A DNA stretch of 64,000 nt. Source: Trichobilharzia szidati (lineage: Eukaryota; Platyhelminthes; Trematoda; Strigeidida; Schistosomatidae). The notes beneath the pieces are model-generated. The model made no database searches. It had not been told where the DNA came from and saw only the letters and a list, made by a program, of their open reading frames with translations. The DNA is taken from contig OX235272.1 of NCBI GenBank assembly GCA_944472155.2, forward strand, positions 82,280,020 to 82,344,019, in the 5' to 3' direction. Shown here one piece after another: positions 6,903 through 60,789 of this stretch (the stretch's first letter is position 1; each line of letters begins with the position of its first letter). Both the position numbers and the translations under genes were made by a program.

Positions 6903-7244
6903 GTGTTAGTTTGTAGGGATTTGATTGGTTTCAGGATTTCATCATGAGCTGACATTAGTTAGAGAACCATTGGAAAACCAGCTGGGAGTACTGGACAGCT
7001 GTTTCGTCCTAGTGCTTGGGACTCTTCAGGGGTCGTGCCATGTCGTGAATTGGCAGAAGTTAGAATTCATGGGCCATTGGATCGGGTCCCAGTGGCTTAA
7101 TGGTCTACTAGCCCGCCTGGGTTCCGACCTTGGTGGTGGATGCGTACTGATGAAGAGTCCCAAACTAGGACGAAACAGCTGTCCAGTACTCCCGGCTGGT
7201 TTTCCAATGGTTCTCTAACTGATGTCAGCTCATGATGAAATCCT
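6903..7244. mobile_element. Fold-back SINE-A (inverted dimer) with 14-bp TSD
   Basis: The left part is reverse-strand tail plus hammerhead. It joins a forward copy that runs from the upstream block through the tRNA-like head, hammerhead and tail. Arms of about 98 bp (6932-7029 against 7147-7245) pair almost fully around the tRNA-like loop. gaaacaagttttaa flanks the whole unit at 6889-6902 and 7245-7258, so the inverted unit inserted in one step. Confidence 0.85.
7144..7189 (+). ncRNA. Hammerhead fold with altered catalytic box
   Basis: Stem I gtactg/cagtac is perfect, stem II gtcc/ggac is perfect, and GAAA, acagctgt (stem III) and the GUC cleavage triplet are all present. The catalytic box is atgaaga, so conserved C3 is A. 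The literal string CTGATGA exists three bases out of register with stem I. Activity is doubtful. Confidence 0.65.
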
Positions 7245-7258
7245 GAAACAAGTTTTAA

Positions 7259-7755
7259 TTTTTAAAGATGTTAAAACTCATGAGGTTAAAGTTTCTTACT
7301 GTGATCATTTCAGAATATTCTTTGTGAGTGACTGATTATAAAAAAGCACTTTTAAAATGTACCTCTGTAGCCACTAATCAATCGTCACAATCGTACACAT
7401 ATGACAATGTAATACGTTATCAATAATCAACGTCATCATATCACACATCTTATTAACCAATCTCTTTAATAATAAATAGCATGAATCGATACTGTTATTG
7501 TTGATATAAGATTCAAGATAGGTGACTCCCTAGTTTACTAATGGACACAATGAAATATGTATAGCTTGTACAGTCACAGGAAGTTACCAGTCTAAATTTC
7601 TGTTAAATGTACACAGAATTTTCACTTTTGAAGTTATTTTTCACTTATTTTTGTTTTAAGCTGGAACATTCTGTCGACAAAGCTGAAAAGACGGGATAAA
7701 AACTGGACTGTTTTCGCCGTATCCTTCATGATTCTTAGTTCAATTCAAATTAACA
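7259..7755. promoter_or_regulatory. 5' flank and probable 5' UTR of the zinc-finger gene
   Basis: No repeat recognised. An in-frame TGA lies at 7729-7731 upstream of the chosen ATG. No TATA box or initiator can be assigned with confidence, and the transcription start is unknown. Confidence 0.35.
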
Positions 7756-9118: not shown

Positions 9119-9182
9119 ATAGTGGAATCCAGAATGCGCATTTCGTCCTATTTGGGACTCGTCATCTGGATGCATCTGCATT
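9119..9182 (-). ncRNA. Sm-alpha hammerhead ribozyme, core altered
   Basis: On the sense (reverse) strand the long stem I (catccag/ctgga and gca outer pairs), stem II gtcc/ggac and GAAA are intact. The catalytic box is atgacga, C3 to A. The cleavage triplet reads AUU. The fold is clear but full activity is unlikely. Active hammerheads of this family are established for schistosomes. Confidence 0.7.
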
Positions 9183-15274: not shown

Positions 15275-15386
15275 AATACTGATGAAGAGTCCCAGACTGG
15301 GACGAAACAACTGTCCAGTACTCTCAGCTGGTTTTCCAATGGTTCTCTAACTAGTGTCAGATCATGATGAAATCCTCCAACCAATC
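15275..15386 (+). mobile_element. SINE-A truncated at the hammerhead, with TSD
   Basis: The copy begins at the 5' strand of hammerhead stem I and runs to the tail end. aaagaatacaag flanks it at 15263-15274 and 15387-15398. The tRNA-like head is absent. Confidence 0.8.
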
Positions 15387-17790: not shown

Positions 17791-17854
17791 GAGTGAGTGC
17801 CCATTAAAATCCACTTGCCTAATCATTTGAATGTATTCTTGGATATCAAGTATC

Positions 17855-18311
17855 GGTTTGCAGGGATTTGTTTGGCTACTGGTCTTATCACGAACTGATA
17901 TCAGTTACAGAAGCAACTGTTTAGTCCTAGTTCAAGACTTTTCAGGAGTACGCATCCACTGGGGTTCGAACCCAGAACCTTCCGGCTACAAGGTGAGCTG
18001 TGAGACCATTCAAACACTAGGAGCCGATTCAATGGCCTGCAAATTCCGACTTCTTTCGGCTCGACCACCAGCGCGGTCCATCAAATCAGGTAAGAGAACA
18101 GTTACTTGATGATGAAATTGTCTGATAGTTACAATATGCGTCACGAACTGGCAGAAGTTGGAATTCATAAGCCACTGAACCGGGTCCCAGTGGCTGGATG
18201 GTTTATAGGCTCGTCTTGTAAATGGAAGGTCCTGCGTTCAAACTCTATACTTCTGGAGAATCGCAAAGTGGGGCTAAACCACTGTCCAGTACTCCCTAAT
18301 TTTCCTTAATT
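17855..18311. repeat. SINE-A inverted pair (tails outward)
   Basis: A reversed copy (17855 to about 18088) is followed directly by a forward copy (to 18311). The order matches the fold-back insertions elsewhere in the window, but this pair is older and no flanking duplication is visible. Confidence 0.7.
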
Positions 18312-23783: not shown

Positions 23784-24079
23784 TTTCAAACATTGGTTTT
23801 GTAGGGATTTTGTTTGATTAGATGGGGGATTTCATCATGATTTGATATCAGTTAGAGAACCATTGGAAAACCAGCTAGGAGTATTCGACAGCTGTTTCGT
23901 CAGCCTAGTCTGAGACTCCTCCGCAGTACGCACCCACAGCAATGGTTCGAACCCAGGACCTTCTGGTTACAAGGCTGGCAAACTTGTAGACCATTGAGCC
24001 ACTGGGACCAAATCCCAGATACTCCCAGGTTTTCCAGTGGTTCTCTAATGGATGTCAGCTCATGATGAAATCCTCCATC
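23784..24079. mobile_element. Fold-back SINE-A in intron 2, with 13-bp TSD
   Basis: A reversed tail, hammerhead and tRNA-like head (to about 24015) join a short forward tail (about 24017-24079). cagttttgtatat and cagttctgtatat flank it at 23771-23783 and 24080-24092 (one mismatch). It lies only 44 bp after the exon 2 donor. Confidence 0.78.
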
Positions 24080-31345: not shown

Positions 31346-31494
31346 ATCAGTAATGCGAATTCACCTTATATAAATAACTTCCCATAAAAATCTTTTTTGT
31401 TATTGGCTTGTCGGTACTCAGTCAAATAAGAATTATGGAAAATATTTTACATTTTCTAAAATCTCGGTTTGAAAGTAATTAATTGATTTTAAGA

Positions 31495-32095
31495 CTGACT
31501 GTAAAGTAACTTCAGTTAGAGGACAACTGAATTCCAGGGATAACTGGATAGTCATTTCGTTCCAACCAGGGGCTCTTCAATAGTACACACCCATGACTCC
31601 CCCAGGGATCGAACCCTGGACCTTCAGGTCACAAGACCAGCTTCTGCACTATTCAGCTACTGAGATGGAATCCCGTTGCCCATCAACTCTAACGTTTGCC
31701 CACTCATGATATAGCGCAACTACCAACCAATGTCATTGGCGAGTATCTATCCTCAAATCCAACCTGATGGACCTAGCTGGTCACGACTTCCCAAAACGGC
31801 TTCAGGCAGCTCCGTCAAACTGAGTGTGTGAGGAGGAATACTTACCGATGACACTGACTAGCAGTCGCACCATAAATGGTAGAAGTTATAATTCATGAAC
31901 CATTACATTCCATCCCAGTGGCTGAATGGTCAAGGAGCTCGCCCTGTAACCCAAAAGATCCTGAGCTCGAGCCCTGGTTGGTTAATAGGCGCATACCACT
32001 CGAGAGTCCCATATAAGGAGGAAACAGATGTTTAATACCACTTAGTTTTCAACAGTTCTCTAACTGAAATCAGTTCATGAACAATCTTGAAATAT
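31495..32095. repeat. Old SINE-A inverted pair (tails outward)
   Basis: A reversed full copy (31495 to about 31800) is followed by a forward full copy (to 32095) with its tRNA-like head ('atcccagtggctgaatggtc'). Confidence 0.7.
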
Positions 32096-33932: not shown

Positions 33933-34760
33933 ATAATAATCTACTTTATTCCAAAAACAATACTTATAATACATGTTTTACGAGTTGATCACGGACTGAT
34001 ATCAGTTAGAGAACCATTGAAAACCAGGGAGTACTGGACAGCTGTTTCATCCTAGTTTGGGAATCATTGGCAGTACGCACCCACTGGGATTCGAACCCAG
34101 GACCTTCCGGTTACAAGGCAAACTCGTATACCATTCAGCCACTGGGACCCGGTTCAATGGCTCTTCAATTCTAACTTCTACCAATTCGTGATTTTAGCGC
34201 GACCCCAACTATTGTCCTTGGTGGGACATCCATCCACACACGTTAGAATAATTTTCTGATGCTCGCTAGTGACTTGCTACAGGTTGGAGCTTCCTGGAGT
34301 TCTAGTGAGAAGTCGTGACCAGTGAGGTCCAATTAGAAGTCACGTGTGTGGATGGATGTCCCACCAACGACAATAGTTGGGGTCGCGCTAAAATCACGAA
34401 TTGGTAGAAGTTAGAATTGAAGAGCCATTGAATCGGGTCCCAGTGGCTGAATGGTATACGAGCTTGCCTTGTAACCGGAAGGTCCTGGGTTCGAATCCCA
34501 GTGGGTGCGTACTGCCAATGATTCCCAAACTAGGATGAAACAGCTGTCCAGTACTCCCTGGTTTTCAATGGTTCTCTAACTGATATCAGTCCGTGATCAA
34601 CTCGTAAAAACATAACTAATCCTTACAAACCAAACTATAGAAAACTTATAATACAGCTTGGAATTTTCGGCATTTGTCTCATTATTACATCTAATATAGT
34701 GAAAATATAAATAAAAGTAACCACAGGAATTTATCCACATTCACAGTAGGAATAAAGTCA
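33933..34760 (-). repeat. CR1-like 3' UTR split by a SINE-A fold-back
   Basis: 'aataatctactttattccaa' to 'acttataataca', then after the insertion 'acttataatacagcttggaattttcggcattt'. Joined at the duplicated 12-mer, it aligns with the CR1 3' UTR at 46.80-46.86 kb. Confidence 0.75.
33974..34643. mobile_element. Near-perfect palindromic SINE-A insertion, 12-bp TSD
   Basis: Arms of about 270 bp (33974-34242 and 34343-34613) differ at only a few positions and are separated by 100 bp of SINE-A upstream sequence. Each arm holds a complete tRNA-like head, hammerhead and tail, with tails outward. acttataataca flanks the unit at 33962-33973 and 34644-34655. Confidence 0.92.
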
Positions 34761-36780: not shown

Positions 36781-37065
36781 ACTGATTCAATGATTTCAAA
36801 TCCAGAAGCTGAAATTCTGTAAAAATCTAATAATGCATAACCAATTTGAGTCAGTAGAAAAAGACGCAAATAGTGAAGAAAATTTGTTTTGGCAATTCAT
36901 TTTTATAAGCTGCACAATCAAAAATTATATTTAATAAAGAATTCATAAGACCAATCAAATACTCGTAAAATCTGTCCTCGGAAGCGTATTACGTAGTGCA
37001 AGGTGCAGTCTAGAAGGGGTGACTGATCAGAAATTAGAAAAGGGGGCAGAAGTTGGCATGACGTA

Positions 37066-37939: not shown

Positions 37940-38401
37940 AAAGTTATAGTAAGAACGTTACTCTGGCCACGGTAGGGTCAGTGGGTGTATATATTGCTTT
38001 TGAATGCCAAGATCCTATTTTCAGATCCCTAATAGTGAATGGTTCAGCTATGTACAGATGGTTTATTCGAAGTGCCTTTGTACGATATTGAGAGACTCTG
38101 TGTAGCCCTGTGAAGCATTCATGAGGAGGTGCTCGATGTCCACAGTTGACGAGGTGTTCTTCTTTTCTCCTCTGGCTAACCAAGCTGGACAATGTTCCAG
38201 GATACGTTTGTGGACTTGACGTTGCGTACGGCCAATATACTTTGCTCCACACGAGCAAGTAAACTGATATGCACACACTGAGGTGGCCAAAAGCGATATC
38301 TTTTCCTTAGCGTCAGACTGGACTAACTGTCTGCTGGAGAACGTGATGCGTAAGGTGGATGCTTGAACTTCTACCCCCTTTTCTAATTTCTGATCAGTCA
38401 C
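37940..38401 (-). pseudogene. Penelope-like element P3, GIY-YIG domain
   Basis: The reverse strand reads CAYQFTCSCGAKYIGRTQRQVHKRILEHCPAWLARGE, split here as CAYQFTCSCGAKYIGRT and QRQVHKRILEHCPAWL. This is the best preserved GIY-YIG motif in the window (Tyr, Ile, Gly, Arg and the EH-x-P-x-WL glutamate all present). A frameshift follows near residue 80, and no polymerase domain is attached. Confidence 0.75.
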
Positions 38402-38526
38402 CCCTTCTAGACTACACCTTGCACTACGTAATACGCTTCCGAGGACAGATTTTACGAGTATCTGACTGGTCTTATGAATTCTTTATTAAATATAATTATG
38501 ATTGTACAGCTTACGAAAATGAATCG

Positions 38527-39289
38527 TTGAAGAGAACATTTTCTTCACTGTTTTTGATCCTATTTCTTATGACTCAATATGGGAATATTTCGTTCATTGA
38601 AGAGCATATCGATTTATTTAAACCCATCAGCACTGGTCATATTCCGTTTCATTTTCAACTACTTTTGATTCAATAGCCCATAATACTTCAACATTTCTGT
38701 CCAGTTTGGCAGTAAAGTCAGTTAAACGTTTCTCCATGTTAAGACTCAGAGTGGAAGAACAAAGTATTTTTGAAAAATGGGATTATTTCTCATCTTATAA
38801 CTCGATTTGATAGCTTATGTTTTTTATGGTGAATGGGCAGCCATGAAATCTGTTCCAATGTAACATAAGGATTGCATTTTCTAGTAGTCTTTGTGATACA
38901 TCGTGCTTCCCCTGATAAGATAGAATCTTTTCAGCAGATATCATATTTAACTGGTCGAGTTTTGCTGTGCATTTAGCAGAAAAACAGATGATAACTGCTA
39001 AGAGGTTAGAAAAGCGGTATTAAGTTTCATTTTGGAGACTACTTAAAAGCCTTGTTTATTTTCACTTTTGTTACAATTATGTTCAGTCACAAAGTATATT
39101 AATTTAACTGAATATCTTTGGATGAGTAAAAAGCATTACTAATTCATTTCTCTATTACATTACCATAATTAGAATTGTTCTATTGTTGTTTTAACCGACC
39201 TGTCAATCAGTAAAAGTAATTAATTAACCCTTCTAATTAAATTAGAATCAGTAAGGCATCATTATAAATTATACGCATGTATAAACATA
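38527..39289. other. Intergenic stretch
   Basis: No supported gene or repeat. Confidence 0.5.
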
Positions 39290-42892: not shown

Positions 42893-44164
42893 TGCCAGTG
42901 TAGATATGTGTGATGGAGAAGATTTGTAGTTCAGGTGGATGATTTTGATGTGCTTGTGTTCTCTGAGCGGGATAGTTTATTTGTGAAGCTTTCATTGCCC
43001 TACTAGGCAACATCTTCAGCGCATACTTCATTCTGAAGTGCTTTTAGATTTATCCACGAGTTTGTGAGTCATCTCTCCTAGTGACCTTGAAAGTCATTGG
43101 TTGTTTTCGTGTTTTTTCAGACCTTCTAGGCTACTTGTATTAGTACTGATTGTTTCCTTGACTTGAACTTTGGACGTCTTAGTCAAGCAAATAACCACAG
43201 GGGAATTAAAAACTAAAGTATATAGAAAATCAACTCACACGGACAAAATACTGAATTACAACAGCAACAGTCCAATAACACACAAAAGGAATTGTATAAA
43301 AACATTATTCAAGAGGGCCAGGATTCATTGCAGCACTCCCACCTTAAGGAAAAGTAAAGAAAGATATCTCATGGACGTCTTCCAAAAGAATGGATATCCA
43401 CGGAATTCCTTCAGAAGACATATACCCCCAGCCAACCTATCAGATCAAAGGCCCACAAGGAAAGCACAAAGAAAATCACCCTACCATATGTAAAGAACAT
43501 TTCAGAAATCACCGCAAGACTCTTCAAACCTTTAGCAATTGACGTCGCACACAAACCAACAAATTCAGTTCACTCAGTTCTATGTCAACCAAAAGACTGA
43601 ATAACGAAAGAAGATAAAACCAACATCATCTACAAAATAAATTGTAACTAGTGCGAAAAACACAACATTGGTCAAAGTGGATGTCCTCTTCGTCTCCCTA
43701 TCCATGACCATAAACTAGCCGTCAAAAAGAGATGATATCCACTCCCTCATATCAGTGCAAACAGACAACCATGGACATCAATTCGACTGGGACAACTAAC
43801 GTTCAGATATTAAACAGAGGAAACGCCAAGAATGCTAGAGAATTTTTGGAAGCCTGGCATTCCAATGAATCGTCAATCAATAGACACATTGACACAGACA
43901 AAAATTATCAACCGATAAGAAGGAAATCTCATACACAACGGGTTAAATTTCAGGTCAGAGAAACAACCAATACCAAATCAAGTAGCCTAGATGTTGTGGA
44001 AACACAAAAAAACAACCAATCACGTTCCAGGTCACCAGGAGAGATGACAAATAAACTCGTGAAGAAATCTACAAGCGCTTCAGAATGAAGTATGTGCTGA
44101 AGATGTTGCCTGGTAGGGCAATGAAAGCTTCGCAAATAAACTATCCTGCTCAGAGAACACAGCC
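42893..44164 (+). mobile_element. Penelope-like element P1 with inverted terminal repeats
   Basis: The left end (42893-43165) is the reverse complement of the right end (about 43850-44164). The centre encodes TKVYRKSTHTDKILNYNSN, KRNCIKTLFKRARIHCSTP and, after frameshifts, NCxxCEKHNIGQSGCPLRL from about 43640 (GIY-YIG region, YIG changed to NIG) and VQILNRGNAKNAREFLEAWH. Motifs A to C are missing, so it is an internally deleted copy. It interrupts family D. Confidence 0.8.
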
Positions 44165-44385
44165 AAAAAGAGAAGCTTTCAAATCAGAGATTAAACATGA
44201 ACGAAGACAATTGATAAGGATCTAGTCAACAGATGGTATGCGAACGTCAGAACAATGTTATACAGTCTAGGAGAAAAACGGATAATTACAGAGTTAGTTA
44301 TAATGTCTAAATAAGTAGCAGCGTCGTGAATAAATCGTCTAAGAGGGATTTTCCAAACAATTATTCCGTTACAACTATTTAAAAA
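44165..44385 (+). repeat. Family D copy, right part
   Basis: It matches 2575-2760: 'aggatctagtcaacagatgg' and 'ttatacagtctaggagaaaa'. Confidence 0.65.
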
Positions 44386-46783: not shown

Positions 46784-47722
46784 TAATAATAGTTTGCTTT
46801 ATTCCAAAACAGTACTTGTGATACAGACTGGAATTCTCAGCATTTCACTACAGTATTGCATCCAGTTTGTACATTAACAATGAATAAAATTCTACATAGA
46901 TTATGAGTAGTCTCAGTTAATTTTGACAACAACATATCAGCATATCGGTAGCAAAGCCAAAAGTGAACAGAATGTTTGAAGGTGTTAGAAAAGTAGATAC
47001 TAGCACACTTACTGGCGTATGCTGTAGCAAAAAGGTCGAAAAAAAGAGAAAAGGAAAAGGAAGAAAGAAAACGTCGTACTTATAAATGATATGAGTTGGA
47101 AAGACGAGATCCAATTGTTCTACTGACTATTTAATAAGTTATAAGTTTCACACCTAATGCTTTCTTTATCACACAGAACACGAGCTAAGTAGGGTCTGGT
47201 TGAGTTTTTGTACTTGCTAGTGCGAGCATATAGCTTTCCAAATAGGCTTCTGGTCCTGCCTGAGATACAAGAGGAGAGTTGTGAATGAGTAGGGTGTCGT
47301 GAGTTAGATAGAATGGATTTGGCCCATTTTTCACATGAGTCCAAGTGCCTGCCGACCAGAATATTAACAAGCTGGTTAAGTGGCACATTGCTTACCCTGC
47401 TGACAACCTTTAACACCCTACGTAATAAGACGTAGTCCTTCTTTAGTAGCTCTGGAAAAACTAAGGGGGAACAATAGAGAATAATCGTCAGCATGCAAGA
47501 GTATACGAATCGTAATAGTAAGGGTTGGGTTATTCCAGAATGTCTTAACTTCTTGATGTAGAAGGTGAGACGGAATATTTTCTTAGAAATCATCAAGATA
47601 TGAGACGACCAGGAAAGATCAGCAGATAGAATGACGCCAAGATATTTAATTTCCGACTTGGTCTCTATTTCAGAGCCGTCTATGTTGCACACCTCGTGAG
47701 TGCTAACCAGTTTGTTTAGTTA
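46784..47722 (-). pseudogene. CR1-like retrotransposon, 5'-truncated
   Basis: The reverse strand has a 190-codon frame (47692-47120): CNIDGSEIETKSEIKYLGVILSADLSWSSH, IFRLTFYIKKLRHSGITQPL and LYCSPLVFPELLKKDY. This is the region after the RT active site, followed by a 3' UTR ending in 'ggaataaagcaaac' and an (ATT)n run. The frame is open here, but the polymerase motifs are missing. Confidence 0.8.
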
Positions 47723-51156: not shown

Positions 51157-53402
51157 TCAATAATAATAATAATAATCACTTTATTCCACAACGATAACAA
51201 CTTACAGCATGGAATTTTCAGCGTTTCACTTTACATATTGCTTTGGTTTAGCTCTTTTTATAATTATATAAATGTATGAAATATTAAAAATATTGGTAAT
51301 TAATAGGAAAAAAATAAAAACCCTAACAAAATCACACCATTTCTAGGTGATAGTGAATAATAAATAAATAATATAACAAATCACACATGCAATAATATGC
51401 ATCATTACATTTTATAGTTTAGTTAATGATTTAAAAGTTGCAAAAGTTCTTTTCTGATATTCGTCTCTTCACACAATACTCGTGCCAAATATTGCACGGG
51501 TGAGTTTTTATATTTTGTAGTACGAGCATAAATGTTTATGAAATTTCTTCTGTTCTTACCCGAAGAGATACAAGGAAACAAATGTGAGTAAAGAGGATGT
51601 TCACTATCAGACAAAATAACTTTAGCTAAGTGTTTACAAGAATTCATGTGCCTATTGACAACAGTGTCAGTTAGTTGAGTCAAAGGGATAGCACTGACCC
51701 TACTTACAGCCCTCAATGTTCTTCGTAGTATTATATGGTCTTTCTTGAGTAGCCCAGGGAAGAATAATGGAGAACAATAAAGAATGATGGGCAAAACACA
51801 TGAATTAATAAATTGCATGAGAAGAGACTGGGTTATACCTGAGTGCCTCAACTTCTTTATGTAATAAGTCAGACAGAAAATCTTTTTAGAAACTATAAGA
51901 ATATGAGACGACCAGCAAAGGTTTGAAGAGAAACTAATGCCAAGATAAGAAGCACTTGACTTACTCTCTATCATGTTACCATCAATATTACAACAATCAT
52001 GAGATTGGATCAATCCATGCACGTCTTTTTCAATTCCCAAGCTGAAATCAACAGTATTACATTTAGTTGGATTTAGTTTAAGACCATTTGAGCCAGACCA
52101 ATCATTAACTTCAGCTAAGAAGCCATTCATATGGGAACAATCCGATGTGGAAACTACAGGGACAGAAACGGTCAGATCATCAGCATACTTAATGAAGTTA
52201 ACTTTGGGTGAGTTCGGAAGGTCATGCAAAAACAAAGAGAAAAGAAATGGAGAAAGTACTGCACCTTGAGGCACACCACTTTCAGTTAACTGAGAGGTGG
52301 AGCGCTTTCCAGCCGAAACAGTATGCTGTTTCCTATTCTTAAAATAAGAAGACAGCCATCTAGTTGCCCAGGTCTCTGTCTGTGCTGAAATCATCTTTCC
52401 TAATAAAAGTGTCCTAGGAACAGAGTCGAAAGCTGCAGTATAGTCTAAAAAAACTGTTCGAACGAAATTAGCACCCTTATCAAGGCAGGAAACAATATTG
52501 TGGTGTAGTACGACGGCTGCATCTAATGTATCTAATGTATTTCTTCCACACTTATAAGCAAACTGCTTAGGGTCACTAAAAGCTTTTAAAGAAGGTTTAA
52601 GAATGTTCAAAAGAAGTTTCTCCATAGTTTTCAAAAACGGAGATGTTATAGCGACCGGTCTAAACTTTAAACCCGCTCCAGAAGATGATTTCTGTACAGG
52701 TACAACCTTGATTTCTTTCTAGTCAGCAGGTACCGTTTCCTTGTTAAATGATGCATTAAAGATTTGAGTAAGAGGATGACACAAGATGTCTGCATACTTT
52801 TGAAGAAGAATGCCTGGTACACCATCTGGACCAAGGCTGTGTGTTGGATTTAAAGTTTTCAAACATAATAGTATATCCTATTCTTTAAAACCCGGAAAAT
52901 GACCATTATCTTGACTAGGTACATCAGGTACAGGCATATTAATTTGTTTCATGATAAATGATTTGTTTAAAGCATTAACATCAGAATAAGCATCAACAGA
53001 CATTTGTTTTTTACTTGTAGGTTTATTGAAAAGTTTCCAAATGTTTGAAGGATTTTTACATGATAAAAATTTTTCATTATATAGTCTGTTCAACCTTTCT
53101 ATTTCAATTTTTATAAGGGTGTTTATTTTACGGACACCAATATTATCACAATTCTTATACAACCTCTCTTTTTGTCTTCTAAGTTTTTTCAGCTGCAAAG
53201 AAGAGATTCTGTCAAATCTCGAAAACAGTGTTTCATATGGACAGCAAATATCCAAACAAAACTTCAGATAATCGGTTATATTAGAGACAGTAGCATCCAA
53301 CTTATCGTCAGTAAATAGTTTCCAGTTGGTATCATACAAAATGCTTTTTAGTGCTAGAATGTTGTCATGGGAATATGAACGTTCATGGAAAATTTTCCCA
53401 GT
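51157..53402 (-). pseudogene. CR1-like non-LTR retrotransposon, near-open RT frame with two amber stops
   Basis: A single reverse-strand frame runs from about 53402 to 51423. It is broken only by TAG at 52878-52880 and TAG near 52720. In order: GRNTLDTLDAAVVLHH; motif A FLDYTAAFDS; motif B SGVPQGAVLSPFLFSLFLHD; motif C FIKYADDLTVSVP; NGLKLNPTKCNTVDFS; and a C-terminal segment matching 47.1-47.7 kb. The catalytic aspartates are intact. The 3' UTR (51157-51422) ends at an (ATT)n run. The 5' endonuclease part is absent. This is the best preserved polymerase in the window. Confidence 0.88.
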
Positions 53403-53512
53403 CTACGGTTTATTTGATAGTACTACTTTTTGTGCTAATAAGCCAATAACTAGTATGAACAAGTAATTGTGAGAATAAGCAACAATAAGCAAACAGATAT
53501 ACCGTCAACAGT

Positions 53513-54100
53513 TTCAAGTTTGGCCACTGATTGATACTAGTTAGAGAACAATTGAAAACCAGAGAGAACTAACTGGACAGCTGTTTCACGCTAGTTGGGA
53601 ACTCATCGGCAGTAACCACCCACCAGTGTTCAAATCCACAATCTTCCGGTTACAAGTCAAGCTCGTGAACCACTCAGCTACTGGGACCCGATGTAATGGC
53701 CCATGAATTTTAACTCCCTACAAACTAACTCTTGAAAATTAATCGGATGCTCGCTGTTGACCGGCTACGGGACGAACCACTGCATGACCAGTGGGGTCCT
53801 TCCAATCGGGAGTGAGGACGAATATCCTCCGATGACAGTGGTTGATGGTACCGCTGAAATCCCGAATTTTCGGAAGTTAGTATTCACATAACGTTAAGTT
53901 GAGTCCCATTGGTTGATTGGTCTACAAGCTTGACTTGTAACAGGATAGTTATGGTTTCAAAACCCGGTGGGTGGGTACTTCCAGTGAATCCCAAACTAGG
54001 TTGAAACAGCTGTCCAGTACTTCATGGTTCTCTAACTGATATCAATCCGTGGTCAAGCTTGAAACAAATCAAATTCTTACAATCTAACTCTTGAAAATCT
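53513..54100. repeat. SINE-A inverted pair (tails outward)
   Basis: A reversed copy (to about 53715), then a forward tail/upstream junction, tRNA-like head, damaged hammerhead (ccagtga box) and tail. No clear target duplication. Confidence 0.7.
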
Positions 54101-55064: not shown

Positions 55065-55308
55065 CTTGGGTTCGAGCCTCGGTAGGAACACCATCACTCA
55101 CTGAAGAATGCAGGTACATCCAACTGATGAGTCCCCAATAGAACGAAGTGTTCATCCTGGATTCCACTGCTAGTCATCACACACCAATCGATTTCAAGTT
55201 ATATAACCAGAAATCGTCGAAGCACATCCACTAGGCGCCGACTTGTCAACCTGAAACCGAGCACTTCGGTCCAATCGATTGGCGGGAAAATCTAAATTGA
55301 ATTAAATA
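55065..55308 (+). repeat. Sm-alpha hammerhead repeat
   Basis: The tRNA-like 3' half ('gggttcgagcctcggtagg'), hammerhead (55110-55170) and tail to 'ggcgggaaaatctaaattga'. The 5' half of the tRNA-like head is missing and the repeat is fused to the RTE fragment. Confidence 0.8.
55110..55170 (+). ncRNA. Sm-alpha hammerhead ribozyme with intact CTGATGA box but damaged stems
   Basis: Box ctgatga (55124-55130) and GAA (55145-55147) are intact, and the long stem I pairs. Stem II has a C/A mismatch (gtcc/gaac). Position 15.1 is G, not A, and the cleavage triplet is AUC. It is probably weak or inactive. Confidence 0.7.
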
Positions 55309-55884: not shown

Positions 55885-56167
55885 CAATATTCGCCGCTAA
55901 TTCAATCTAACACCTGTATGACTTCTTAACTCAGACCCCATATGTCTTTAATCAACTGTGCAGTTGTGAAGTGCTAAAGTGTCACAGAAGGAACAAACAG
56001 ACATACTGTCTGAATACTTTTCTTCTCTCTTTTCTATTTGTGTTTTAGGCATTTAACTGTGGCAGATGTTTTTACTTTTTTGTATATGAAATAAAGCGCA
56101 GTAGACTATTGTCATATTGTTAAGTTTTCAACTACCTGGAAAACTGCAATAAAGAATTGACTGTTAA

Positions 56168-58060
56168 TTTGTAATTAGTAGTGTTCTCTGAGCTGGTTGG
56201 TTTAGTTGCAGGGCTTTCGTCGTCCCCCTGCTGGACAACATCTTCAGAGCAATTTTTAGCATAAAGTGAACTGATTTAAATCTTCCATGAGTGATAGAAT
56301 TGCGTCTCCTGGTAACCATCTTTACATCTGTATTGATCACTTTTTATTGACTTCGATTATAAACTTTCTCGTCACATGATTTACTTTTTATTAGTTGATA
56401 GATTTGGTCTATATTAACATGTTTGTTAATCGCGTATTCGTTTGAGTACTAGGCTTCCAGGAATTCTCTGGCACTTTTGGTGTTTCCTCTGTTCCAAAAC
56501 TACACAAACCAAACATTCCGTTACGACCAATCGTTTCCCTTCAAGGAACACCAACACTACTCTATCTAAAGAACTTTTCATGAAATTAAAATGCCTAACA
56601 GAATCATGCGACCATTCCATCAATTCGTCAATCCAATTTTTAGAGAAAATCAAAAACATTCAAGTGGACAACAATGAAATAATGGTGTCCTTTGATGTCA
56701 CAGCATTATATACTTCAATTAGTCCAAAACTAGCAACAGAAACTATGCAACAATTACTCTATAGTGATGAAAACATAAAAACGAAGTGTTCAATTTGAAT
56801 GGAACTCATAAAATTATGTCTTACGACATACTTCTAAATCAGTAATCAAATATACGAAGAGATAAAAGGAACACCAATGGGATTGCCCGTATCAGGATTA
56901 AAAGCTTAAGCCGCTATGAAAATATTAGAATTAGTAACCCTCCCTACCTATAATTAAACCAAAAAAACTAGGTATGTTACGTTGATGGTACACTTGTAAT
57001 AATTAAAAGAAATGATTTGGAATATACCCACAAACTAATAAACAACATATTTGAAGACATCAAATTCACAAGAGAAGAAGAATTAGACAACAAAATTCCA
57101 TTTTTAGATGTCTTAATCAACAGAACCAACACAGGAAATTCAGAAACACAAGTATATAGAAAATCAACGCACACAGATCAAACGCTCAAGTATAATAGTA
57201 ATAACTTGATTACCCACAAAAGAAACTGTGTGCAGACATAGTTTAGAAGAGCTCAAACATACTGTAGCACTCCACTGATGAAGAGAATGGAGGAAACATA
57301 CCATCTACAAACCGTCTTCAAAAAGAATGGATATCCTCACAGTTTCATCAAAAAGTGTTTAAACTCGAGTCATAACACCAACAACAGGCTAACATCAAAG
57401 ACCACATAGGATTCGTCCTACGATATATAAAAAATATCTATGGAATAACAGCTAGAATATTAAGACCGTTTGAAATAGACATAGCACACAAGCCATCCAG
57501 TCAGCTAGTCAGCACAATCACTTCATTTGATACTGTGCAAATCAAAGGATCCAACAGAAAAAGAAGATAAAATTAGTACCATTTACAAAATAAATTATAT
57601 GAACTGTAACAGACATTACATCGGTGAAAGTAGGCGTCCCCTTCGAATCAGAGTCCAGGAACATGATATATATTCTTTCATATCAATGCATGTAGATAAT
57701 TAGAGACATTAGTTTGATTGGGATAATGTCGAAATTTTAAACAGAGGAAACACCAAAAGTGCAGTCAGGGAATCTCTAGAAGTCTAGTACTCAAACGAAT
57801 ATGCTATTAACAAACATGTTAATATAGACCAAATCTATCAACTAATAAAAAGTAAATCATGTGACGAGAAAGTTTATAATCAAAGTCAATAAAAAGTGAT
57901 CAATACAGATGTAAAGATGGTTACCAGGAGACGCAGTTCCATCACTCATGAAAGATTTAAATCAGTTCACTTTCTGTTAAAAATTGCTGTGAAGATGTTG
58001 TCCAGCAGGGGGACGACGAAAGCCGTGCAACTAAACCAACCAGCTCAGAGAACACTACTA
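56168..58060 (+). mobile_element. Penelope-like element P1, full layout with inverted terminal repeats
   Basis: The left end (56168 to about 56490) is the reverse complement of the right end (about 57740-58060), extending outward through 'taattagta'. Interior: VPKLHKPNIPLRPIVS (56491-56538); motif A SFDVTALYTSI (about 56688); motif B KGTPMGLPVSGL (about 56868); motif C YVDGTLVI (aspartate 2 lost, about 56976); EYTHKLINNIFEDIKFTREE; KSTHTDQ; and the GIY-YIG part NRHYIGESRRPLRIRV near 57605. Many frameshifts and stops break it. Layout and order are complete, but it is not functional. Confidence 0.85.
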
Positions 58061-58139
58061 ATTATAAATCACCCACCTGAGCTACAAATTCTTTCTATAA
58101 TTTCAAAATTGACTGTTAATGTTTGAAAGAAAGGAAATG

Positions 58140-60090: not shown

Positions 60091-60759
60091 CAAGTGTTGG
60101 TTTGTAGGGATTTGATTGATTTGTTATAGGATTCCATCATGAGCTGACATCGGTTAGAGAACCACTGGAAAACCTGGGCGTACTGGACAGCCGTTTCGTC
60201 CCCCTTCTTCTGGAATCTTCAGCATTGTGCACCCGCCGCCAGGGTTCAAGCCCAGGATCTTCTGTTCGCGAGGCTAGCGAACTCGTAGACCATTAAGCCA
60301 CTGGGACCCGATCTGACCGATTTTGGCTAAAGATGAAATCCTGTAACTAATCAATCAAATCCCTACAAACCAACACTTGCATATCAATGAGATGCTCACT
60401 AGTGACTGACCCTATTCAGGTAGGTGGTTACCTGGGTTCTAGTGGAAAGCCATGATCAGTGGGGTCCAGCACGTCGGGTATAAGGACAAATACTCGACAC
60501 TGATGAGATTCACTAGTGCTTGCGCTATGTCTTGAATCGGCAGAAGCTGGAATTCATGGGTCAGCCATTACATTGGGTCCCAGTGGCCTAATGGTCTACG
60601 AGCTTGCTAGCTTTGTAACCAGAAAGTCCTTGGTTCGAACCCTGTCGGTGGTTGCATAATGCTGAAGAGTCTTAAACTAGGACGAAACAGCTGTCCAGTA
60701 TTCCCAGTGGGTTTTCCAATGGTTCTCTAACTGATGTCAGCTTATGATGAAATTCTGCA
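60091..60759. mobile_element. Fold-back SINE-A with 12-bp TSD and an intact hammerhead core
   Basis: A reversed tail, hammerhead and tRNA-like head (60091-60318) are followed by a forward tail/upstream junction (about 60330-60400), upstream block, tRNA-like head (about 60576-60650), hammerhead (60656-60701) and tail. acactgtaactt and acactataactt flank it at 60079-60090 and 60760-60771 (one mismatch). At 669 bp it is almost the same length as the palindromic unit at 33974-34643. Confidence 0.82.
60656..60701 (+). ncRNA. Hammerhead ribozyme with consensus core
   Basis: Stem I ataatg/cagtat (5 of 6 pairs), box CTGAAGA (60662-60668, fits CUGANGA), stem II gtct/ggac (one G-U pair), GAAA (60684-60687), stem III acagctgt and GUC (60693-60695, predicted cleavage after 60695). 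All conserved core bases are present. This is the only SINE-A copy in the window with a complete core. Confidence 0.72.
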
Positions 60760-60789
60760 ACACTATAACTTGGAAAATTGATTGGAAAA

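What the first reader, a model, noticed from the sequence alone, without database searches (positions are those of the whole stretch)
33962..34655. A near-perfect inverted SINE dimer inserted as one unit into a CR1 tail
Two complete SINE-A copies, tails outward, form about 270-bp arms around a 100-bp spacer. One 12-bp duplication (acttataataca) brackets the pair, and the paralogous CR1 tail at 46.80-46.86 kb shows the empty site. Two independent insertions would leave two duplications. The direct reading is that an inverted dimer was the integrated molecule. I know of no described mechanism for this in hammerhead SINEs; template switching during target-primed reverse transcription or snap-back second-strand synthesis are candidates.
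Basis: partly seen in the sequence, partly recalled or inferred. Interest (0 to 1): 0.85.

Follow-up and report, generated by a model that had tools for sequence, protein, structure and literature searches.

The report
Two-armed insertions of a hammerhead SINE
A small mobile element in a fluke-like genome often lands as two mirror-image copies joined at their heads, and one copy nearly always ends about 34 bases later than the other, which suggests that its copying machine reverse-transcribes RNA from both cut strands of the target at once.

Summary
The inverted pair is real: arms 33976-34243 (-) and 34342-34609 (+), 268 nt, 99% complementary, one 12-bp duplication around both, and two paralogous tails in the window show the empty site. 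The left copy is 5'-truncated; the 'spacer' is the right copy's own 5' end.

It is a common insertion form of this family. Head-to-head composites are 19 of 48 insertions in the window plus 13 blind 10-kb regions, and sit at 15 of 20 rank-ordered young loci. Of 52 composites examined, 35 had both 3' ends classifiable: 34 have one arm with a 34-nt A/C-rich tail and one without; 1 has two tailless arms. In a validation set under the same rule it was 15 of 15. Of 21 clean duplications 19 are 12 bp; both cut sites share an N^R-N-Y motif.

This matches the published signature of Penelope-like elements (head-to-head pLTRs, tail on one arm, one target duplication); one at 56167-58106 in this window shows it too.

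Best reading: bilateral target-primed reverse transcription by Penelope-type machinery, each cut strand priming at one of two adjacent start sites, the cDNA heads then joined. Known for Penelope elements; my searches found no report for a hammerhead SINE.

The parts
33962..33973 (.). target-site duplication, left copy (ACTTATAATACA)
33974..34243 (-). left arm: SINE-A unit positions ~87-360, 5'-truncated, tailless 3' end abutting the left duplication
34244..34254 (.). head-to-head junction, ~11 nt, matching the tandem-unit linker or its inverse (quasi-palindrome)
34255..34643 (+). right arm: essentially complete 396-bp unit, ending in the tail
34610..34643 (+). 34-nt A/C-rich tail present on the right arm only
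34644..34655 (.). target-site duplication, right copy
34031..34076 (-). degenerate type I hammerhead (30.1 bits, gathering 34; core CUGA reads CCAA), left arm
34509..34554 (+). degenerate type I hammerhead (30.1 bits), right arm
34437..34509 (+). tRNA-like region (20 bits, below gathering 29), right arm; the left arm's is 34076-34148 (-), 22.4 bits
46786..46862 (+). paralogous tail with the site empty
51169..51226 (+). second paralogous tail with the site empty
6906..7264 (.). another head-to-head composite (left tailed, right tailless; outer repeat CAAGTTTTAA)
17852..18311 (.). another head-to-head composite (left tailed, right 3' end truncated, so unclassified)
23793..24078 (.). another head-to-head composite (tailed/tailless; 13-bp outer repeat with one mismatch)
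31463..32092 (.). another head-to-head composite (tailed/tailless; outer repeat not significant)
53511..54087 (.). another head-to-head composite (tailless/tailed; no outer repeat recognisable)
60097..60767 (.). head-to-head plus tandem composite (tailed/tailless; 12-bp outer repeat with one mismatch)
56167..58106 (.). Penelope-like element with the same architecture: left arm (-) 56167-56493 tailless; right arm (+) with RT/GIY-YIG-like remnants, ending at 58069 and followed by a ~37-nt tail; outer repeat AATTGACTGTTAAT

Best explanation
Insertions of this hammerhead SINE are commonly made by bilateral target-primed reverse transcription carried out by Penelope-like (PLE) machinery. A dimeric endonuclease nicks both strands of an A+T-rich target, usually 12 bp apart, at the same short motif (inferred from the duplications and flanks). 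Each of the two free 3' ends primes reverse transcription near the 3' end of SINE RNA. One strand uses the distal start site (giving the 34-nt tail), the other the proximal start site (no tail); this division is shown by the sequences, its cause is inferred. The two antisense cDNAs run inward, stop at varying 5' positions, and are joined head to head, probably over a few bases of microhomology (no chance control was made for the overlaps). The arms of one pair are usually alike, which fits copying of one RNA or of RNAs from one locus (inferred, moderate support). The W34 pair is a young, nearly complete example.
For: Head-to-head 18, tail-to-tail 0 among neighbours within 30 bp in window + 13 blind regions (one of the 18, L020:2318-2606, is a cross-hit on a Sm-alpha-like pair). 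34 of 35 classifiable composites have one tailed and one tailless arm, 17 of 52 unclassified; chance about 1e-5 for the first 19 of 20 if ends were independent; 15 of 15 in the validation set. Outer duplication score >=9 in 34 of 52 composites against 3.3% of 600 mismatched flank pairs. Among 21 clean duplications 19 are 12 bp; 82% A+T against 63% in the window. Symmetric nick motif: first base beyond the duplication is a purine in 20/21 and 19/21, third a pyrimidine in 19/21 and 20/21 on the two strands. Two Penelope-like elements in the window have one tailed and one tailless inverted arm, one of them with an intact outer repeat. Literature: the architecture in Penelope elements; both-strand cleavage and extension and two adjacent start sites in vitro.
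Against: No PLE sharing SINE-A's 3' end was found; the two PLEs compared show no similarity to it beyond chance, so the mobilising enzyme is not identified. 29 of 48 insertions in the unbiased set show no second arm (old copies, short arms and other products cannot be separated), and 5 of 20 young rank-ordered loci show none. One composite has two tailless arms. Only 8 of 19 composites in the unbiased set keep a recognisable outer repeat. A decayed tail would be read as tailless, which could inflate discordance in old pairs. Arms are more alike than the average other copy in 11 of 13 young pairs, but more alike than the single closest other copy in only 4 of 13. Across all loci 3 tail-to-tail neighbours lie within 110 bp, one abutting (L011). 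The published in vitro work saw no difference in start site between strands, compatible only if the choice is made per event. Some rotifer Penelope copies have no duplication (passages).
Confidence: 0.78

Rival explanations
1. Snap-back (self-priming): a single cDNA or antisense RNA folds back on itself and is copied, giving a hairpin that is integrated. Proposed for head-to-head Penelope repeats in PMC3846280 (passage read).
For: Arms within a pair are more alike than the average other copy in 11 of 13 young pairs. L033 is an almost perfect palindrome of three units per arm, all six units differing by at most one base.
Against: It predicts the same 3' end on both arms; 34 of 35 classifiable composites have different canonical ends, L033 included. 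A snap-back on target-primed cDNA would also copy the flank in inverse orientation, whereas the outer repeats are direct.
Confidence: 0.07
2. A pre-formed inverted dimer (RNA or DNA) is a stable source form and is integrated as one unit.
For: One outer duplication. One junction (tailless arm at unit 119, tailed arm at 361) recurs in two loci, L031 and L053.
Against: Junction positions otherwise differ among 31 pairs. A search with the W34 junction found no second copy among the 40 candidates scored; of four other matches that span the query (83-87%), the three fetched (L030, L031, L034) have other junctions and the fourth was not examined. Tail asymmetry is unexplained.
Confidence: 0.05
3. Two independent SINE insertions, later made alike by gene conversion.
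For: High copy density in the window (35 profile hits in 64 kb).
Against: No tail-to-tail counterpart among neighbours within 30 bp in the unbiased set (18:0); single outer duplication; empty site without a second duplication.
Confidence: 0.02
4. The same bilateral priming, but by a LINE enzyme (CR1/RTE type), as a variant of L1 twin priming.
For: RVT_1-type reverse-transcriptase ORFs are present; twin priming is known for L1 (recalled).
Against: A near-constant 12-bp duplication, a 34-nt tail on one arm and the one-tailed rule match PLEs, which show it in the same window. L1 twin priming yields parts of one copy, not two arms each started at a canonical 3' end (recalled).
Confidence: 0.08

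Closest known systems
Penelope-like elements (Penelope/Poseidon, flatworm Perere)
   Same: Head-to-head inverted terminal copies, 8-10 bp duplications in rotifer cases in the passages read (some rotifer copies have none), optional 31-bp tail on one inverted pLTR; A/C-rich start region, two start sites, both strands cleaved and extended in vitro; type I hammerheads in PLEs.
   Different: SINE-A has no reverse transcriptase or endonuclease gene; 396-bp tandem unit with a tRNA-like region; duplication of 12 bp; no sequence similarity to the two PLE ends compared here.
Non-LTR (metazoan) retrozymes
   Same: Non-autonomous, type I hammerhead, tandem repeats; PLEs already proposed as their mobilisers (PMC7761336, section 8 read).
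   Different: 396-bp unit against the stated ~150-300 bp; the hammerhead core of the W34 copies is altered; circular RNA not tested here.
SM-alpha family of Schistosoma
   Same: Hammerhead SINE-like element of schistosomes (PMC8490949 passages). A Sm-alpha-like family (so named by recall of its hammerhead) also occurs in the window at 9127 (-) and 55118 (+).
   Different: The SINE-A consensus aligns to those two copies mainly over the hammerhead and a short tRNA-like stretch.
Twin priming of human L1 (recalled)
   Same: The second target strand also primes reverse transcription, giving an inversion within one duplication.
   Different: There the second priming is internal and the two pieces together make up one copy; here both arms start at canonical 3' ends.

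Membership tests
Penelope-like element (as the mobilising machinery) | head-to-head inverted terminal copies within one target duplication | tested here: met
   52 composites; outer duplication score >=9 in 34 of 52, null 3.3% of 600
Penelope-like element (as the mobilising machinery) | tail of about 30-40 nt on one arm only | tested here: met
   34 of 35 classifiable composites, 17 of 52 unclassified
Penelope-like element (as the mobilising machinery) | A+T-rich target, both strands cut | tested here: met
   duplications 82% A+T; same motif beside both cuts; cutting itself is inferred
Penelope-like element (as an element) | ORF with RT and GIY-YIG domains | tested here: not met
   no ORF of 110 aa or more inside the W34 pair; it is non-autonomous
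Penelope-like element (as the mobilising machinery) | autonomous partner sharing the 3' start region | tested here: inconclusive
   PLE-type gene remnants abundant but no shared 3' end with the two compared; the genome-wide protein search did not complete
Non-LTR retrozyme | type I hammerhead in tandem repeats | tested here: met
   7 of the 9 hammerheads above gathering in the window lie in SINE-A copies; 396-bp arrays on C688 and C4
Non-LTR retrozyme | repeat size of about 150-300 bp | tested here: not met
   396 bp
Non-LTR retrozyme | accumulates as circular RNA | not testable with these tools
   needs RNA
tRNA-derived SINE | tRNA-related head with A and B boxes | tested here: inconclusive
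   Rfam tRNA 22.4 and 20 bits, gathering 29; ARAGORN none in the window

The most novel reading that the evidence does not exclude
Penelope-type insertion is inherently two-armed and asymmetric: one RNA is copied twice per event, once from each target strand, by the two subunits of a dimeric RNP bound at two adjacent start sites, so that an insertion is born as one tailed plus one tailless arm. Hammerhead SINEs use this route, and their inverted pairs are its ordinary products.
Probability: 0.4. Interest if true: 0.85.

Novelty: new variant of a known kind. Interest (0 to 1): 0.68.

Why it matters
How Penelope-like elements insert is open: self-priming was proposed (PMC3846280), and later both-strand extension was seen in vitro (PMC11167929). 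A small, abundant, non-coding element that keeps both arms, both 3' ends and a near-constant 12-bp duplication offers many natural end-products to read. The one-tailed/one-tailless rule is a direct test against self-priming and ties the two start sites to the two target strands. It also supplies sequence evidence for the published suggestion that PLEs mobilise hammerhead retrozymes.

Tried and rejected
Transcript-start idea: several arms end near unit 386, but over 62 arm ends there is no clear peak there (6 against 4.2 expected); dropped.

Hammerhead cleavage as template 5' end: dropped; some arms run past the site (unit ~292) to 242-289, and the W34 hammerhead core is altered.

Special RNA fold at the two start sites: none seen (z 0.47 and 0.22).

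SINE-A 3' end shared with window PLEs: not seen (shuffles reach the score in 259 and 302 of 500).

PLE type by Pfam: no PLE match to the short ORFs. The PLE assignment rests on similarity to trematode RT proteins and one S. haematobium protein that joins RT and GIY-YIG-like motifs; those motif names are recalled. Solved-structure searches gave no meaningful hit.

Third inverted repeat (36846-37054 / 38366-38577): no outer repeat or tail recognised.

Hammerhead in the PLE at 56-58 kb: none found at E <= 1.

Rfam MIR827 match across the two arms: far below its gathering score; it reflects the inverted arms.

One search (3'-end query) returned nothing, probably because its words are too common; uninformative.

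Full report
Observation. The window holds an inverted pair with 268-nt arms (99% complementary) bracketed by ACTTATAATACA at 33962-33973 and 34644-34655. Joining the flanks with one repeat copy gives a sequence that aligns across the site to 46786-46862 and 51169-51226. So it is one insertion. Against a 396-bp unit taken from a tandem array elsewhere in the genome (22 of 24 units identical), the left arm is positions ~87-360 and the right arm about a whole unit. The apparent spacer is the right arm's 5' end plus ~11 nt of the inter-unit linker or its inverse. The right arm ends 34 nt later than the left.

The genome. The window lies in a 1.11-Gb, 907-contig assembly without a name. Among the named relatives of two of its RT and endonuclease-like ORFs the closest are from Trichobilharzia regenti, with other flatworms such as Schistosoma haematobium also listed, so a schistosome-like fluke is likely; the species is not known.

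How common it is. I surveyed the window plus 13 blind 10-kb regions at round coordinates (L016-L028; four of them, L018, L021, L023 and L024, gave no hit). Neighbours within 30 bp are head to head 18 times, head to tail 8 times, tail to tail never. One of the 18 (L020:2318-2606) is a cross-hit on a Sm-alpha-like pair. With head-to-head joining up to 110 bp, 19 of 48 insertions there are head-to-head composites and 29 are not (18 of 49 at 30 bp). Over all loci used, neighbours within 110 bp are 52 head to head, 36 head to tail and 3 tail to tail. Among 20 young loci taken in rank order from a search with a 5' region (L045-L064), 15 carry a head-to-head composite at the query copy and 5 do not (L046, L047, L048, L060, L062). 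L041-L044 were picked by eye, where some showed inverted neighbours, so they are not used for frequencies. Left out of the counts: the arrays L010 and L015, L001-L008 (arrays or places already held) and L029 (W34 itself).

One tailed arm, one tailless arm. With a rule set (best match to a 15-nt tail word: >=11 tailed, <=9 tailless; random stretches reach 11 in 1.9%), 19 of 20 classifiable composites of the first sets were discordant; 10 of 30 were unclassified. In the validation set (L041-L064) the same word rule gave 11 of 11 with 4 unclassified when arms were joined up to 40 bp, and 15 of 15 with 4 unclassified when joined up to 110 bp. At 110 bp overall 34 of 35 are discordant, 17 of 52 unclassified; the exception is L020:1878-2117, a diverged pair with two tailless arms. 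Single-copy insertions in the unbiased set whose 3' end could be scored are 13 tailless, 9 tailed, 1 unclear, so independent choice would give about 48% discordance; the chance of 19 of 20 is then 1e-5.

Duplications and cut sites. Outer direct repeats scoring >=9 occur in 10 of 14 (discovery), 8 of 19 (unbiased, mostly old) and 16 of 19 (validation) composites, against 3.3% of 600 mismatched flank pairs; >=11 in 9, 3 and 11, against 0.17%. For lengths I used 21 of the 23 composites scoring >=11 (L013 and L020:9377 left out): the repeat is 12 bp in 19, 13 in 1 and 16 in 1, and 82% A+T (window 63%). Eleven composites scoring 9-10 were not used, so shorter duplications are under-represented in that count. 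The base just outside the repeat, read on the cut strand, is a purine in 20/21 (tailed side) and 19/21 (tailless side), and the third base a pyrimidine in 19/21 and 20/21. Both cuts thus obey one motif, as expected of a dimeric endonuclease (inference).

Junctions and arms. In 31 young pairs the head ends lie at many different unit positions; the two alignments overlap by 1-6 bp in 20, by 10-13 bp in 3, and are blunt or gapped in 8; no chance control was made, so microhomology joining is an inference. The W34 junction was not found elsewhere among the 40 candidates scored; of four other matches spanning the query, the three fetched have other junctions and one was not examined. Arms of one pair are more alike than the average other copy in 11 of 13 young pairs, but closer than the closest other copy in only 4 (L009, L019, L031, L033). 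Some pairs share variants seen in none of the other young insertions compared (L031 four, L033 five, L034 four); W34's shared 3-nt difference from the array unit agrees with the family consensus and is thus probably ancestral. L033 has three units in each arm, all six differing by at most one base, and still one tailed and one tailless end.

What it works like. In Penelope elements the adjacent inverted pLTR, one target duplication and a 31-bp tail on one of the inverted pLTRs are described, with self-priming suggested as the cause; some copies there have no duplication (PMC3846280, passages). A lizard Penelope-like protein cleaves and extends both target strands and starts at two adjacent internal sites that account for the tail (PMC11167929, parts 1-2 of 4). 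In this window a Penelope-like element has arms 56167-56493 (-) and 57740-58069 (+), a ~37-nt tail after the right arm only, and AATTGACTGTTAAT outside both ends; a second one (42943-43171 / 43945-44168) has its tail on the left arm only and a decayed repeat. A third inverted repeat near endonuclease-like ORFs showed neither. SINE-A therefore inserts in the Penelope way. Self-priming predicts equal arm ends and does not fit; bilateral target-primed reverse transcription does.

What is shown and what is inferred. Shown: one event for W34, the prevalence in the sampled loci, the tail rule, the 12-bp duplications, the symmetric motif, the shared architecture with PLEs. Inferred: dimeric enzyme, RNA template identity (one RNA copied twice, or two RNAs from one locus), microhomology joining. 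Not found: the partner PLE; SINE-A shows no similarity to the two PLE 3' ends compared.

Novelty. The architecture is known for Penelope elements. A review names PLEs as likely mobilisers of non-LTR retrozymes on grounds of shared ribozymes and co-occurrence (PMC7761336, section 8). My ten searches of the held open-access library (result listings read, plus passages of PMC3846280, PMC7761336, PMC7229834, PMC8490949 and PMC6515669 and parts of PMC11167929) gave no report of this architecture in a hammerhead SINE, nor of the one-tailed/one-tailless rule as near-obligate; papers outside that library were not seen.

Noticed in passing
window 56167-58106: Penelope-like element with inverted head-to-head arms, a one-sided ~37-nt tail and outer repeat AATTGACTGTTAAT.
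   Followed up: yes
window 42943-44168: Second Penelope-like element with inverted arms and the tail on the left arm only; duplication decayed.
   Followed up: partly
window 36846-37054 / 38366-38577: Inverted repeat (132 nt, 97%, 1.3 kb apart) around endonuclease-like ORFs; no tail or outer repeat recognised.
   Followed up: partly
L015 (contig C688) and L010:3017-5946: Homogeneous 396-bp tandem arrays of the SINE unit; the 10 kb read of C688 (10,765 bp) is array throughout, 22 of 24 units counted identical.
   Followed up: partly
L033:412-2743: Inverted trimers: three near-identical units (393-bp spacing) in each arm, a near-perfect palindrome about 2.3 kb long.
   Followed up: partly
window 9127-9171 (-) and 55118-55162 (+): Hammerheads of a second, Sm-alpha-like family; head-to-head neighbours of it at L020:2301-2623 and L022:5321-5503.
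   Followed up: partly
window 15276-15384: Single short SINE-A fragment (hammerhead to 3' end only) with a 15-bp direct repeat bearing one mismatch.
   Followed up: no
L031 and L053: Same junction (tailless arm at unit 119, tailed arm at 361) in two insertions with different target duplications; possibly a microhomology hot spot.
   Followed up: no
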